A DNA stretch of 64,000 bases from Oceanobacillus caeni (GTDB lineage: Bacteria; Bacillota; Bacilli; Bacillales; Amphibacillaceae), in NCBI RefSeq assembly GCF_019037185.1, contig NZ_JAHHXM010000012.1, forward strand, positions 1 to 64,000, written 5' to 3'. Made by a program: the position numbers and the translations under genes. Of the stretch, positions 4,228 to 36,366 are shown piece by piece (position 1 is the first letter of the stretch; each line of letters begins with the position of its first letter). The notes beneath the pieces are model-generated. The model was not told the DNA's origin, ran no database searches, and saw only the letters and a list, made by a program, of their open reading frames with translations.

Positions 4228-4430
4228 GGACACGTCCAGCTCCAGCGCCTAGCGAGACTTCCCTCACCTCCGTACGATAAGTCAACATCGACTCACTGTT
4301 AAGGAAGGTCGACTAAAACCGGCCTTTGCGGCCAACGTCGACATACCCCTATGAAGGGGCATGTTTCCTTTATCTCCTGCGGCTCAGTCCAGTCCGTACG
4401 TCACTAAACGGGCGCTTCCGCTTTTGTTCT
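4228..4430 (-). repeat. Family A intergenic repeat, copy 1 (with two-hairpin insert)
   Basis: Read on the minus strand this begins at the htrA stop with GAACAAAAGCGGAAGCGCCC and ends near 4228 with GGAGCTGGACGTG. It shares long blocks with 27773-27925 and 36151-36366, including GGAGATAAAGGAAACA and TCGATGTTGACTTATCGTAC. Within it, 4308-4342 folds as an outer stem GTCGAC/GTCGAC, an inner stem GGCC/GGCC with loop GCAAA, and an asymmetric loop GTT opposite GGTTTTA. Another hairpin (CCCC/GGGG) lies next to it at about 4344-4362. Confidence 0.85.
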
Positions 4431-5651
4431 TTATTGTGCTCCGAGTTCAAAAGTTGTTTCTTTTCGTTTTCCATTGCGATAATAGGTTACTTTTACCTTT
4501 TCCCCAATTTTCTTTTCTTGATATAAAATCTTGCGTAAATCAATCATTGACATTGTTGGTTTATCATCTAGTGCAGTAATTACGTCCAACTGCTTTAAAC
4601 CAGCTCTATCAGCCGGGGATAACGGTTCGACAGTCCAAACATATACTCCGCCTTCTACATCCTTAGGTAGTTTTAAAGTATCCTTCCATTCCGCTTGCGG
4701 GACTTCATCTAGTGAATAGATTTCTACGCCTAAGTATGGCCGAACCACTTCTCCGGTATTCTCTAATTCATTCATAACTGGCAGTGCAAAGTCGATGGGA
4801 ATAGAAAAAGCAATTCCTTCCACCGCTTCTTGGTTAATTTTCATCGAATTAATACCAATTAATTGGCCGGAAATATTAATAAGTGCCCCACCACTGTTAC
4901 CCGGGTTGATTGCCGCATCTGTTTGAATTACTTCCGCCTGCCAATCCGCTCTACCATCTTGATCAAAATCTTGTGGTATCGTACGTTCTTTTCCACTTAT
5001 TACACCTTGTGTTACTGTACTTGAGAACATATGACCAAGAGGATTTCCTATCGCAATAGCAGGTTCGCCTACCTTAACATTACCGGATGAACCAATATCT
5101 ATTACCTTTTCTACATTTGAGGCGTCCATTCGTAATACAGCTAAATCGGTAAAAATATCGCTTCCGATTATCTCTGCTGGAATGGAGGTTTCATTATATA
5201 ATATAACCTCAACCTCATCTGCACCTTCAATAACATGATGGTTTGTCACAACATAAGCATTTCCATCTTTTACCTTATAGATAACCCCAGACCCTGTAGC
5301 AACCTCGCTTACCTCTGATTGATGCCAATAATCAGCACTTTCCATGAGATTCGAAACACCTACAACTGCTGGGGTAACCTTATTCACTATTTCAGTAATT
5401 TGAGTGGAGACATCTACATTAACAGAAGTATTAATGATTTCACCAGGAATTTCACCCTGACCATTCTGCTCCATATTCACTTTATTGAAGCTCTCTGTCT
5501 TTTCATTTTGTGTTCCAGCAAAAGATGGTATAACTTGAACTGCGAGAAATACTCCAATACCTAGTCCAACTAACATGGATAAAACCCAATAATATTTGCG
5601 TTTCTTTCTACGATGTGGATTTGGGGGATACCCTTCGTTATAATAGCCCAT
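4431..5651 (-). CDS. htrC: HtrA-type serine protease of the WalRK locus (HtrC/YycK)
   Basis: A 406-aa membrane-anchored S1C protease. A cytoplasmic basic N-terminus and one transmembrane helix (about residues 21-45) precede a trypsin-like domain with catalytic His139 (in TNHHV), Asp169 (in FTDLAVL) and Ser253 (in NPGNSGGA). A single PDZ domain follows (about 300-400). Members degrade or refold misfolded proteins at the outer face of the membrane. It lies 73 nt downstream of walJ in the same direction, as in B. subtilis where yycK closes the walRK cluster. ATG 5651 follows AAAGAGGGAAA. Its stop codon lies exactly at the border of a family A repeat, so its 3' untranslated region is repeat-derived. 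Confidence 0.92.
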   Translation of the reverse strand: MGYYNEGYPPNPHRRKKRKYYWVLSMLVGLGIGVFLAVQVIPSFAGTQNEKTESFNKVNMEQNGQGEIPGEIINTSVNVDVSTQITEIVNKVTPAVVGVSNLMESADYWHQSEVSEVATGSGVIYKVKDGNAYVVTNHHVIEGADEVEVILYNETSIPAEIIGSDIFTDLAVLRMDASNVEKVIDIGSSGNVKVGEPAIAIGNPLGHMFSSTVTQGVISGKERTIPQDFDQDGRADWQAEVIQTDAAINPGNSGGALINISGQLIGINSMKINQEAVEGIAFSIPIDFALPVMNELENTGEVVRPYLGVEIYSLDEVPQAEWKDTLKLPKDVEGGVYVWTVEPLSPADRAGLKQLDVITALDDKPTMSMIDLRKILYQEKKIGEKVKVTYYRNGKRKETTFELGAQ

Positions 5652-5724
5652 ATATTTTCCCTCTTTTTATTAGTATTTACTATTACAGTAGTTTTCCTAC
5701 TTTTAGGGAAAATACACGGGAAAA

Positions 5725-6510
5725 TTAACTTACTTCAAATAATGATGTTGGCTCTTCTGGATCCGTGTCATATAAACCAATGTTAATTCCGCGTTCTTGA
5801 AGTACTTGATCAACAGACATACGTGCTAGATCTTTCATATTGTTATCTAAACTTAAGTGTGCTAAATAAATTCGCTTTGTACGATTACTAATAATATCTG
5901 CTAATGCTAATCCACTATCTTCATTAGAAACATGGCCGGAGTCCCCTAAAATTCGACGTTTTACACTCCAAGGATACCTGCCCATACGTAGCATTTCCAC
6001 ATCATGATTCGCTTCAAAGATATAGGCATCTGCGTCTTCCACGGTCTTCTTAATTCGCTCAGAAACATAACCTAAGTCTGTCACAAGCGCCACTTTCTTC
6101 CCGTTACTGTGAAATGTATAAAACATTGGTTCTGCTGCATCATGGGATACACCAAATGATTCTACATCCATATCCTCAAAGGTCTTAACTTCTTCCATCT
6201 GAAATAAAAACCTTTGATCTACTGACAATTTTCCAATTGACTTATCCATAGCTTTCCACGTTTTTTCATTTGCATAGATTGGTAGATTGTATTTGCGTGC
6301 AAAGATTCCTAATCCTTTAATATGATCACTATGCTCATGTGTAACTAAAATACCAGATAGATCAGACGGATCTACCTGGATTTTTTGAAATAATTCAGTA
6401 AGCTTCTTTCCACTTAAACCAGCATCCACTAATAACTTCTGCCGTTCTGATTCGATATAAAAGGCATTTCCTGTACTCCCAGATGCTAATACACTAAAAC
6501 GTAAAGTCAT
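5725..6510 (-). CDS. walJ: WalJ (YycJ) metallo-beta-lactamase-fold hydrolase
   Basis: A 261-aa metallo-beta-lactamase fold protein with metal motif THEHSDH near residues 57-63 and further conserved His and Asp (GVSHDA near 122, TDLGYV near 146, HLSLDN near 217). WalJ proteins belong to the RNase/nuclease-like branch and are implicated in coordinating cell division with DNA replication; the substrate remains unsettled. The start overlaps the end of walI by 4 nt (ATGA), indicating translational coupling within walRKHIJ. Confidence 0.95.
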
Positions 6511-7448
6511 TTTTCTATTTCACTCCGATTTTTGAACTGTTGCTTTTTGTTTAACAAGTCTAAAAATGGTTCAAATTTCTTCTCATCTTTATCATCTAAA
6601 GAATGAATCTTATAGATGTTATCTTCAATCATAGTATTAAGAAAAGTTTTATCGAAGCTGGAGAATGTAAAACCTTCAATAGCATTAATAAAGTAATTAC
6701 GCTCCCCGCCATTTACCGTTACATTCCATGTAGGAGCAAATACTTGCTCTCCCTCTTCAATTAACCTGGAATAATATCCTAACTCTATTTTTGTTACTTT
6801 ATCATTAGGATGCAAATCGTTTGAATTATATAATGCTTCAATAGCTTGCATTTGCTGAATTAATGGCTTAGAACCAGAACCTTGAGCATCTGTTTTACTT
6901 AATAAGGTTTCTGTATAATGTGTTATTTCATTTTTATCATTTAAATAGACCAATAAAAGGCCAGGTCCATGTTCATTATAATACACCGTACGACCTTCAA
7001 TTTGCTGGAAGAAAATCAACACATTTAAATCCTTATACCAATCCCAATATACGAATTCGTCCGGAAAAAATATTTGACCTTTTACTAAATCAGATATTTC
7101 TTGTTTTGTAGCATTCTTCGGGATAGGTATTGGATCATCTAGTTGAGATACAATAGAATTACCATTAATAACAGCTGTTTGTTGCCCATCTTTATTTTGA
7201 ATCTTTTCTAATTCTTTTTCATCAAAAACTCTTTCCGAAGTTAAAATATATGTTTCTTCTTTTACATTCGTATCCAATTCAGGAAGACTTATATTATCTG
7301 CTTCTAATTGGTCTTCGATTGTCGTTTCTTGGCTAAAAATAATCCCTAGATCGGCATCTTGCTGCTTATGAACAAATTGAAAGACTAAATAGATATTAAG
7401 AATTAGGAAACTAAGGATAAATAGTGTTTTTATATGACCCCATTGCAT
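6507..7448 (-). CDS. walI: WalI (YycI), membrane regulator of WalK
   Basis: A 313-aa bitopic protein with an N-terminal membrane helix (about residues 7-25) and a large extracellular YycI-type domain. In B. subtilis, WalI and WalH form a complex with the WalK kinase through their membrane helices and hold it inactive. It is 17 nt downstream of walH and overlaps walJ by 4 nt. It is somewhat longer than the roughly 280-residue B. subtilis protein, with an extended acidic stalk after the membrane helix. Confidence 0.92.
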
Positions 7449-7465
7449 CTCTTAGTCCCCCCTTT

Positions 7466-35448: not shown

Positions 35449-35790
35449 TTACCTTTTTAATAAACGTTCTTTATATAAAAGATGGGTTAAACTCTTTTTT
35501 ACTTCTTCATACCCCATATCTTTCGTCTGATTTCTAGCAATAATTACGATATCATGTGGGTATTTTATTTGACCTTCCAATTCTTGAAAAGCTTGACGCA
35601 AATATCTTTTAATTCTATTACGTGTCACAGCATTTCCGATTTTTTTACCGACCGAAAGTCCAACTCTAAAATGACTCTGTCCAGGTTTTTCTATGTAGTA
35701 AATAACAAGCTGACGGTTAGCAAAGGATTTACCTTTTTTAAACACAAACTGGAATTCCTCATTATTTTTAATACGAAATCTTTTTTTCAT
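35449..35790 (-). CDS. rnpA: Ribonuclease P protein component RnpA
   Basis: A 113-aa basic protein that assists the RNase P RNA in maturing tRNA 5' ends. The family motif [19 protein letters not shown] (near 54-72) is intact. ATG 35790 with AGGTGG 5 nt upstream is chosen; a GTG three codons earlier is part of that ribosome binding site. Position between rpmH and yidC is universal. Confidence 0.95.
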
Positions 35791-35872
35791 TCTTACCACC
35801 TATCTAACCCTTACAAGCCTGTCCTATTTGTTTTTAATATGTACAATCTTTCATTAATGTAATGATATGTAG

Positions 35873-35899
35873 AAAAAGACCACTGAGTCAACAGTGGCC
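35873..35899 (-). terminator. Partial terminator between rpmH and rnpA
   Basis: GCCACTG pairs with CAGTGGT (read on minus) and is followed by CTTTTTC. The stem touches the rpmH stop codon. It probably makes rpmH transcripts more abundant than rnpA. Confidence 0.65.
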
Positions 35900-36033
35900 T
35901 ATGCTGATAATACTTTTCTTCCTTTACGGCGACGACGAGCTAGAACTTTACGTCCATTTTTTGTGCTCATACGAGCGCGAAAACCGTGTACTTTTTTACG
36001 TTTACGATTATTTGGTTGGAATGTTCTTTTCAT
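35899..36033 (-). CDS. rpmH: Ribosomal protein bL34
   Basis: A 44-aa highly basic protein beginning [20 protein letters not shown] and ending GRKVLSA, nearly identical to the family consensus. GGGAGGTGC lies just upstream of the ATG. Its position immediately left of oriC is standard. Confidence 0.97.
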
Positions 36034-36150
36034 TTATCTTGCACCTCCCTAAGGGAAAACTTCATATCTAAAATTAATGTTCATAACTTATCTATCAGAC
36101 AGTCTTTGTAATTATACGTAATTTCTAGGTGATTTGTCAAATCTATTTTT

Positions 36151-36366
36151 GAACAAAGGCGAAAGCGCCCGTTTAGCGACGTACGGACTGCGCCTGGCCA
36201 TGCCAGGTGGTCCGATGTTGCCGCGCAAAGCGGCGGTTTTAATCGGACATTCCACTTCCGCAGGAGATAAAGGAAACACGACGAACGGAGTGAGTCGATG
36301 TTGACTTATCGTACGGAGGTGAAGGAAGTCTCGCTAGTCGCTGGGCGCTGGAGCCGGACGTGGTCC
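36151..36366 (+). repeat. Family A intergenic repeat, copy 4 (with two-hairpin insert)
   Basis: Begins GAACAAAGGCGAAAGCGCCC and ends GGAGCCGGACGTGG. The insert 36192-36248 contains hairpin CCTGGC/GCCAGG and a second structure: outer stem GTCCGAT/ATCGGAC, inner stem GCCGC/GCGGC with loop GCAAA, and GTT opposite GGTTTTA. The same fold with different stem bases occurs in copy 1, but inserted at another place in the core. Confidence 0.9.

What the first reader, a model, noticed from the sequence alone, without database searches (positions are those of the whole stretch)
4308..36248. A modular RNA-like hairpin with compensating base changes inside family A repeats
In copy 1 (minus, 4308-4342) and copy 4 (plus, 36210-36248) the same structure appears with different stems: GTCGAC/GTCGAC versus GTCCGAT/ATCGGAC outside, GGCC/GGCC versus GCCGC/GCGGC inside. 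The apical loop GCAAA and the asymmetric loop GTT opposite GGTTTTA are unchanged. Each is preceded by another hairpin (CCCC/GGGG, CCTGGC/GCCAGG). The two-hairpin block sits at different places within the otherwise shared core, and copy 2 lacks it. The long family B copy (30993-31063) has the related layout GTCGGC-GTT-stem-GACTTTA-GCCGAC. Fixed loops with changing paired stems argue for selection or copying of an RNA fold. I do not recognise it as a named RNA.
Basis: partly seen in the sequence, partly recalled or inferred. Interest (0 to 1): 0.75.

Follow-up and report, generated by a model that had tools for sequence, protein, structure and literature searches.

The report
Modular hairpin repeats that swap parts
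This bacterial genome is dotted with short repeats assembled from interchangeable two-hairpin pieces; one piece is a relative of a known RNA motif of unknown function (Bacillaceae-1), and a sister species carries different pieces at the same spot, so it looks more like a shape-dependent mobile repeat than an ordinary RNA gene.

Summary
The hairpins are real at the stated coordinates, and the covariation holds in larger alignments: 9 of 20 pairs (24 distinct copy-4-type blocks) and 8 of 18 pairs (32 copy-1-type blocks) change on both sides, above shuffled and slid controls. The block is not nameless. On the opposite strand it resembles the Rfam motif Bacillaceae-1 (RF01690): 41.6 bits for the long family B copy, 30-34 bits (cut-off 35) for blocks of the copy-1 and copy-4 type. 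A G.U pair at one fixed place in 54 of 56 rows favours the repeat's own strand as the folding strand.

Family A is a dispersed repeat of Oceanobacillus and relatives with optional modules at up to four positions. At the copy-1 site the sister genome G016 has the same ends but another interior; 26 other congeners have no copy there. Copy 4's place is empty in the 24 congeners that could be read, though five hold a copy elsewhere in that gap. Best reading: a MITE-like, modular mobile repeat whose folded form matters for its upkeep or spread. No driving enzyme, clean target duplication or RNA data was found. A new variant of a known kind (BOX, bcr1, mitochondrial hairpin elements).

The parts
4228..4430 (-). 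Family A copy 1 (core plus module b), between the stop of an htrA-like gene (ORF 4431-5651; name read from the translation, no family search) and a terminator-like hairpin
4303..4364 (-). Two-hairpin module b of copy 1 (reverse-strand relative of Bacillaceae-1)
   Evidence: model R1 match 90.6 bits; the sequence is itself a row of the model's alignment
4308..4342 (-). Second hairpin of module b: GTCGAC-GTT-GGCC-GCAAA-GGCC-GGTTTTA-GTCGAC
   Evidence: covariation of its family
27772..27924 (+). Family A copy 2: short core without optional modules
   Evidence: L021; G016 has a solo-ends form in the opposite orientation in the same gap
36151..36366 (+). Family A copy 4 (core plus module a), between rpmH and dnaA (names read from the ORFs, no family search)
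   Evidence: (L041); its place is empty in the congeners read
36190..36253 (+). Two-hairpin module a of copy 4
   Evidence: model R1 match 36188-36252, 31.9 bits
36210..36248 (+). Second hairpin of module a: GTCCGAT-GTT-GCCGC-GCAAA-GCGGC-GGTTTTA-ATCGGAC
   Evidence: covariation of its family
30858..31095 (+). Family B long copy, with ends GTTCAAAA...TTTTGAAC (bounds by eye)
30975..31077 (-). Bacillaceae-1 (RF01690) match inside family B, 41.6 bits, over the gathering score of 35
30973..31063 (+). 91-base Bacillaceae-1 module (with an inner hairpin, module d) present here and absent from the orthologous family B copy of G016
33787..33888 (-). Minimal family A form (ends, tail and a scrap of Bacillaceae-1), absent from G016 (bounds by eye)

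Best explanation
Family A is a non-autonomous, mobile-element-like interspersed repeat of Oceanobacillus and related Bacillaceae. It has base-paired ends and an interior assembled from optional two-hairpin modules. The block in the finding is such a module and a reverse-strand relative of Rfam Bacillaceae-1. Shown: the fold and its compensatory changes, high copy number, presence or absence at orthologous sites, and different interiors at one fixed site. Inferred: copies spread to new sites, often between a stop codon and a terminator; interiors are reshuffled by nested insertion, recombination between copies and deletion between short direct repeats; and the fold is kept because some single-stranded stage (read-through RNA, or single-stranded DNA during copying) needs it.
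For: Copy number: 79 matching pieces in the own genome; 40 distinct copies printed, 29 core-only and 11 with one to three modules (counted by reading it; further copies listed were not fetched). 36 of 58 genomes have a match, 26 of the 28 in the genus with the own genome counted; named hosts. Fold; less selected checks (67 distinct copy-1-type blocks, outer stems paired in 976 of 1002 cells; 28 copy-4-type blocks, 453 of 466 cells). The end arms covary too: AGCGAC/GTCGCT, AGTGAC/GTCACT, AGCAAC/GTTGCT, AGAGAC/GTCTCT, AGGGAC/GTCCCT (70 of 91 rows read pair throughout). Modularity: of 129 elements extracted (some the same place twice), 103 were parsed; 92 fall into 11 combinations of recognised forms and 11 have an unclassified segment, in part a parser fault. 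Turnover: copy-1 site, same ends but other interior in G016, no family A match in 26 others; copy 4's place empty in 24 of 24 gaps read; 3 of 30 own loci share a copy at the same site among 42 G016 stretches compared, each with another interior, and a fourth pair has copies at different places; a Bacillaceae-1 module present or absent inside one orthologous family B copy. Context: 10 convergent, 17 tandem, 1 divergent, 2 undetermined of 30; stop codon within 12 bases in 11 of 17 with a sense gene upstream; a terminator-like hairpin follows in 8 of 12 tested (no chance control run).
Against: No clean target duplication for family A. No driving enzyme: Y1 transposase matches are absent from 6 genomes that carry the repeats, and no other transposase family was searched. 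Gain and loss cannot be told apart at most sites. Apart from the fixed G.U pair the G.U to A.C asymmetry is weak (26 v 14, two-sided p 0.08). Of 91 end-arm rows, 21 do not pair throughout as cut. No RNA data were available.
Confidence: 0.6

Rival explanations
1. Host-functional RNA: the repeats act as folded 3' UTRs or released small RNAs, for example stabilising upstream transcripts.
For: Covarying fold with a likely strand; 11 of 17 copies with a sense gene upstream start within 12 bases of its stop and 8 of 12 tested are followed by a terminator-like hairpin, so read-through transcription is likely. Rfam lists Bacillaceae-1 as a small RNA gene.
Against: No clear orientation bias in tandem gaps (7 sense, 10 antisense); sites are seldom shared among the congeners compared; modules lie in both orientations.
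Confidence: 0.2
2. No selection on the fold: DNA-level template switching and gene conversion between palindrome arms keep the stems matched.
For: Elements are palindromic, nested and appear to recombine; such correction can produce two-sided changes (recalled).
Against: A G.U 'mismatch' stands at one fixed place in 54 of 56 rows and the asymmetric internal loop persists, whereas arm correction would be expected to erase both.
Confidence: 0.12
3. REP-like elements moved as single-stranded DNA hairpins by Y1 (RAYT or IS200/IS605) transposases.
For: Strand-specific imperfect hairpins; no target duplication seen for family A; PF01797 matches in 48 of 58 genomes.
Against: No PF01797 match in G002, G004, G012, G022, G024 and G027 although they carry family A and RF01690 matches; no target motif seen by eye upstream of the 5' ends.
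Confidence: 0.06
4. CsrA decoy RNAs, as proposed for the reverse complement of Bacillaceae-1.
For: PMC4333381 (one passage read); on that strand the window's family B copy has AGGA in its first loop and beside the hairpin that splits its second; CsrA in 56 of 58 genomes.
Against: The hairpin loops of copies 1 and 4 have no GGA; CsrA is also present in G010 and G013, which lack family A and RF01690 matches.
Confidence: 0.05

Closest known systems
Rfam RF01690 Bacillaceae-1 RNA
   Same: Same two-hairpin layout with the UAAG..AAC internal loop and the flanking AAGGA, on the opposite strand.
   Different: Blocks of the copy-1 and copy-4 type score just under the cut-off (30.3-34.3 against 35) and lack the RUCCU loops; the fixed G.U speaks for the opposite strand. 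The passages read do not describe it as a part of composite repeats.
BOX elements of Streptococcus pneumoniae
   Same: Modular small interspersed repeat with inverted ends paired to each other and a predicted RNA fold (PMC3049150, passages read).
   Different: BOX is built of boxA, boxB and boxC; here several different two-hairpin modules enter different positions, some in both orientations. No sequence comparison was made.
bcr repeats of the Bacillus cereus group
   Same: Dispersed intergenic repeats; bcr1-bcr3 are called MITE-like, and 84 of 165 and 62 of 155 copies of all families were found in mRNA in two strains (PMC3446304, passages read).
   Different: Sequences were not compared here; no module exchange is described in the passages read.
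Yeast mitochondrial GC clusters
   Same: Mobile palindromes that merge and shuffle, with stand-alone and merged forms at the same site (PMC4478555, passages read).
   Different: Organelle elements, shorter; no homology tested. Mitochondrial double-hairpin elements are known here only from listings and recall.
Bhal-1 repeat family of Bacillus halodurans
   Same: A 74-base stem-loop family with 36 copies and a conserved structure (PMC2267715, table passages read); size and host make it a lead for a Bacillaceae-1-like unit.
   Different: Sequence not seen or compared.

Membership tests
RF01690 Bacillaceae-1 | covariance score at or above the gathering score of 35, family B copy | tested here: met
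   30975-31077 minus: 41.6 bits
RF01690 Bacillaceae-1 | the same score for blocks of the copy-1 and copy-4 type | tested here: not met
   34.3 (L002), 34.1 and 30.3 (L004), 32.0 (L041 = copy 4); copy 1 itself was scanned only at gathering threshold and not reported
RF01690 Bacillaceae-1 | RUCCU terminal loops (recalled; GUCCU and AUCCU stand in the consensus) | tested here: not met
   Absent in copies 1 and 4; present in family B
MITE-like repeat | matched inverted ends | tested here: met
   End arms pair throughout in 70 of 91 rows read and covary
MITE-like repeat | filled and empty orthologous sites | tested here: met
MITE-like repeat | target-site duplication | tested here: inconclusive
   None clear for family A; a family B insertion in G016 shows an 8-base near-repeat
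MITE-like repeat | partner transposase with the same ends | not tested
   No dedicated search was made
REP/RAYT | resident Y1 transposase in every carrier genome | tested here: not met
   no match in six genomes that carry the repeats
CsrA-binding small RNA | GGA in hairpin loops | tested here: not met
   Not in copies 1 and 4; present in family B
CsrA-binding small RNA | CsrA binding | not testable with these tools
   needs a binding assay

The most novel reading that the evidence does not exclude
The two-hairpin modules are themselves the replicating units: shape-recognised RNA or single-stranded DNA elements that jump into one another's loops and into gene 3' ends, a bacterial counterpart of mitochondrial GC clusters and double-hairpin elements, moved by an unknown enzyme. 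Rfam Bacillaceae-1 would then be one such unit, modelled on the strand opposite to the one that matters.
Probability: 0.27. Interest if true: 0.8.

Novelty: new variant of a known kind. Interest (0 to 1): 0.5.

Why it matters
It gives a catalogued orphan RNA motif (Bacillaceae-1) a setting, as an exchangeable part of composite repeats found in dozens of copies per genome, and offers an answer to its open strand question. Because sister species carry different parts at the same site, it can be used to ask how folded nucleic acid units spread without an evident enzyme of their own, and whether covariation in 'RNA' families sometimes reports on mobile DNA rather than on a host RNA.

Tried and rejected
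A single large functional RNA with fixed domains was considered. The core does fold with long-range stems, but modules lie in both orientations and differ between species at one site, so this was set aside as the main reading. Y1 transposase and CsrA were tried as drivers by their presence across 58 genomes, and neither tracks the repeats. Plasmid and phage records gave no match. A strand test by G.U versus A.C counts was only suggestive (29 v 15; 26 v 14, p 0.08, with the fixed pair set aside). The outer stem TAAAGGAA/TTCCTTTA around module b is poorly supported (134 of 464 cells unpaired) and is not claimed. Target duplications for family A could not be established. Rfam at a lax threshold also matched Burkholderiales-2 to the copy-4-type block (33.9 and 31.3 bits against a cut-off of 67.9), taken as chance. 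Paper searches listed no title that describes these composite repeats; only the open-access library was searched, and only passages of seven papers were read.

Rows dropped: 26 of 129 elements failed the parser. Of the 32 copy-4-type and 61 copy-1-type candidates, three of the former were false; 24 plus the window's own block, and 32, were aligned. The 29 copy-1-type rows left out mostly have another inner stem length or GCC in place of GTT, so may flatter the inner stem; searches are the less selected checks. In one search, 12 of 103 rows were skipped. One base was doubled in rows lacking module c and was mended; the fold drawings carry that flaw, the combination counts do not.
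Full report
Observation. The structures lie exactly where reported. Copy 1 (minus strand, 4342-4308) reads GTCGAC-GTT-GGCC-GCAAA-GGCC-GGTTTTA-GTCGAC. Copy 4 (plus, 36210-36248) reads GTCCGAT-GTT-GCCGC-GCAAA-GCGGC-GGTTTTA-ATCGGAC. Each follows a simpler hairpin. The long family B copy has the related layout at 30993-31063, and copy 2 is a bare core.

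Extent. The copy-1 query finds 79 pieces in the own genome. Forty distinct copies were printed: 29 core-only of about 140 bases and 11 with one to three modules, the longest 320 (counted by reading it); further copies listed were not fetched. A full-length copy finds relatives in 36 of 58 genomes: 26 of the 28 in the genus with the own genome counted (G010 and G013 have none), five of six others of the family, and five of 24 others of the order.

Anatomy. A family A copy has paired ends (…GCGCCCGTTTAGCGAC … GTCGCTGGGCGC…), a core, and insert positions. Position 1 after CGTACGGACTG holds about 13, 47 or 73 bases. Position 2 after GGAAACA holds about 18 or 75. Position 3 after GTTGACTT holds none or about 59. 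Position 4, before the 3' arm, rarely holds an extra hairpin. Of 129 elements extracted (some the same place twice), 103 were parsed; 92 of these fall into 11 combinations of recognised forms, and 11 have a segment outside the classes, in part because the parser slipped. The block of the finding is the long form at position 1 (copy 4) or position 2 (copy 1).

Covariation. With the two-hairpin structure written by hand, 97.1% of 479 cells pair and 9 of 20 pairs change on both sides in 24 distinct position-1 blocks. In 32 position-2 blocks it is 97.7% of 576 cells and 8 of 18 pairs. For the first block none of 500 shuffles reached any of the five measures. For the second, 0, 1, 0, 37 and 0 of 500 did, so 'further pair types' is the weak one. 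All slid versions fall far below. The shuffles do not control for relatedness, and rows were chosen, so this is support and not a formal probability. Less selected checks agree: 976 of 1002 cells of the two outer stems pair in 67 distinct position-2 blocks, and 453 of 466 cells in 28 position-1 blocks, counting only pairs predicted on both strands. The end arms covary as well: of 91 rows read from 103, the fully paired kinds are AGCGAC/GTCGCT (46), AGTGAC/GTCACT (7), AGCGAC/GTCGTT (6), AGCAAC/GTTGCT (5), AGAGAC/GTCTCT (4) and AGGGAC/GTCCCT (2); 21 rows do not pair throughout as cut.

Strand. A G.U pair stands at the same place of the first hairpin in 22 of 24 and 32 of 32 rows. On the other strand it would be an A.C mismatch. 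Other G.U against A.C cells are 26 to 14, p 0.08. So the repeat's own strand is probably the folding strand, opposite to that of RF01690. PMC4333381 reports that the discoverers of Bacillaceae-1 were not confident of its strand (passage).

Identity. Rfam at gathering threshold reports Bacillaceae-1 at 30975-31077 minus (41.6 bits). At a lax threshold, on four loci, the position-2 block scores 34.3 and 34.1 and the position-1 block 32.0 and 30.3, all on the strand opposite to family A. RF01690 is itself high-copy: matches in 45 of 58 genomes, up to 68 in one. A model of the position-2 block finds 15 matches in the own genome, and matches in 25 of 58 genomes (strict filters). In the window it finds copy 1 (90.6 bits, a row of its own alignment), copy 4 (31.9), the reverse strand of copy 1's first hairpin (17.0, E 0.036) and weakly family B (14.4, E 0.15).

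Turnover. At the copy-1 site, downstream of an htrA-like gene, G016 has flanks 94.6% and 97.5% identical and the same outer ends, but the interior is replaced by a Bacillaceae-1 unit in Rfam's orientation, and the core part between two CGTACGGA repeats is missing. In the other 26 congeners the stretch between the conserved flanks has no family A or Bacillaceae-1 match. For copy 4, 26 of 27 other genomes match the rpmH flank and each match ends at or before query base 264, with the repeat starting at 262. In 24 of these 26 the whole gap to dnaA could be read: none has a family A match near the copy-4 place, but five (G012, G016, G020, G022, G023) have one farther on, 435 or more bases past the flank. 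In G016 about 445 bases with copy 4 and a family B copy are replaced by about 52, and its own copy lies just upstream of dnaA. Of 30 own loci compared with 42 G016 stretches (some overlapping; one, L131, was fetched by its flank), three share a family A copy at the same site (L001/L131, L016/L081, L018/L073), each with a different interior. A fourth pair (L019/L175) has copies about 0.7 kb apart: G016 is empty at the first place, and the own genome keeps only a solo pair of ends at the second. As not all G016 copies were fetched, three of 30 is a lower bound. Aligning the window with 70 kb of G016 shows the 91-base Bacillaceae-1 unit of family B present in one species and absent in the other, and several other hairpin elements likewise.

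Orientation and nesting. Inner hairpin module d is found in both orientations within family A (forward in L062 and L097, reverse in L050, L102 and L127). Module e sits at GGAGAT^AAAGG forward in L105 and L109 and inverted in L079 (judged by eye; being nearly palindromic, its orientation rests on small asymmetries). Bacillaceae-1 in Rfam's orientation follows the GCGCCC arm in L062 and L131, precedes the AGCAACGTAC arm in L075 and L110 (left side not in view), and lies in the same part of L129 (by eye), while the modules at positions 1 and 2 lie on the other strand.

Context. In 30 own loci with mechanically called ORFs, 10 copies lie between convergent genes, 17 in tandem gaps (7 sense, 10 antisense), 1 between divergent genes and 2 are undetermined. 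In 11 of 17 with a sense gene upstream the copy starts within 12 bases of the stop codon. In 8 of 12 such copies (within 17 bases) a terminator-like hairpin follows; no chance control was run, and some of these hairpins may serve the facing gene. Transcription as 3' UTR is therefore likely for these, by inference.

Mechanism. A mobile-element-like repeat with a folded, probably strand-specific form: shown for fold, copy number and turnover, inferred for movement itself. Nested insertion, exchange between copies and deletion between direct repeats would explain the interiors. What moves it is unknown: Y1 transposases do not track it, nor does CsrA, and no other enzyme family was searched. Why the fold is kept is open between RNA and single-stranded DNA; plain arm correction is disfavoured by the fixed G.U and the kept asymmetric loop.

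Comparison. BOX (PMC3049150), bcr repeats (PMC3446304) and yeast mitochondrial GC clusters (PMC4478555) work alike in the passages read; the last also show stand-alone and merged forms at one site. None was tested for homology. What looks new, within the papers listed and passages read, is the exchange of several different two-hairpin modules within one repeat frame and the place of Bacillaceae-1 inside it.

Noticed in passing
window 30858-31095 and 13514 onward; G016 insertion opposite window 16159: Family B has ends GTTCAAAAA...TTTTTGAAC, and a G016 copy is flanked by an 8-base near-repeat (CTATAAGG/CTTTAAAG) where the window has a single CTATAAAG, so it looks like a classical MITE.
   Followed up: partly
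3' tails of family A copies L002, L010, L015, L028, L033, L035, L038: At least seven of 40 printed copies carry TTATCCACA just past the element, which matches the DnaA-box consensus as I recall it.
   Followed up: no
window 36151-37092; L347, L353, L357, L361, L364: The rpmH-dnaA (origin) gap carries family A copies in the own genome and in five of 24 congeners read, at other places in the gap.
   Followed up: partly
window 20399, 20813, 27752, 35359, 35834 (G016 comparison): Another short palindrome family, AACTTGGCATTCGC...GGCGAATGCC with a TTGCACTTAT tail, also differs between the two species.
   Followed up: no
L138, L140, L143, L145 at the copy-1 site: Four congeners have long unrelated repeat-like sequences at the copy-1 site, one of them a tandem array (by eye).
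   Followed up: no
G016 contig C37, insertion opposite window 12074; window 33787-33888: Minimal 'solo-ends' forms of family A of about 80-100 bases occur, either as ancestors or as deletion products.
   Followed up: partly
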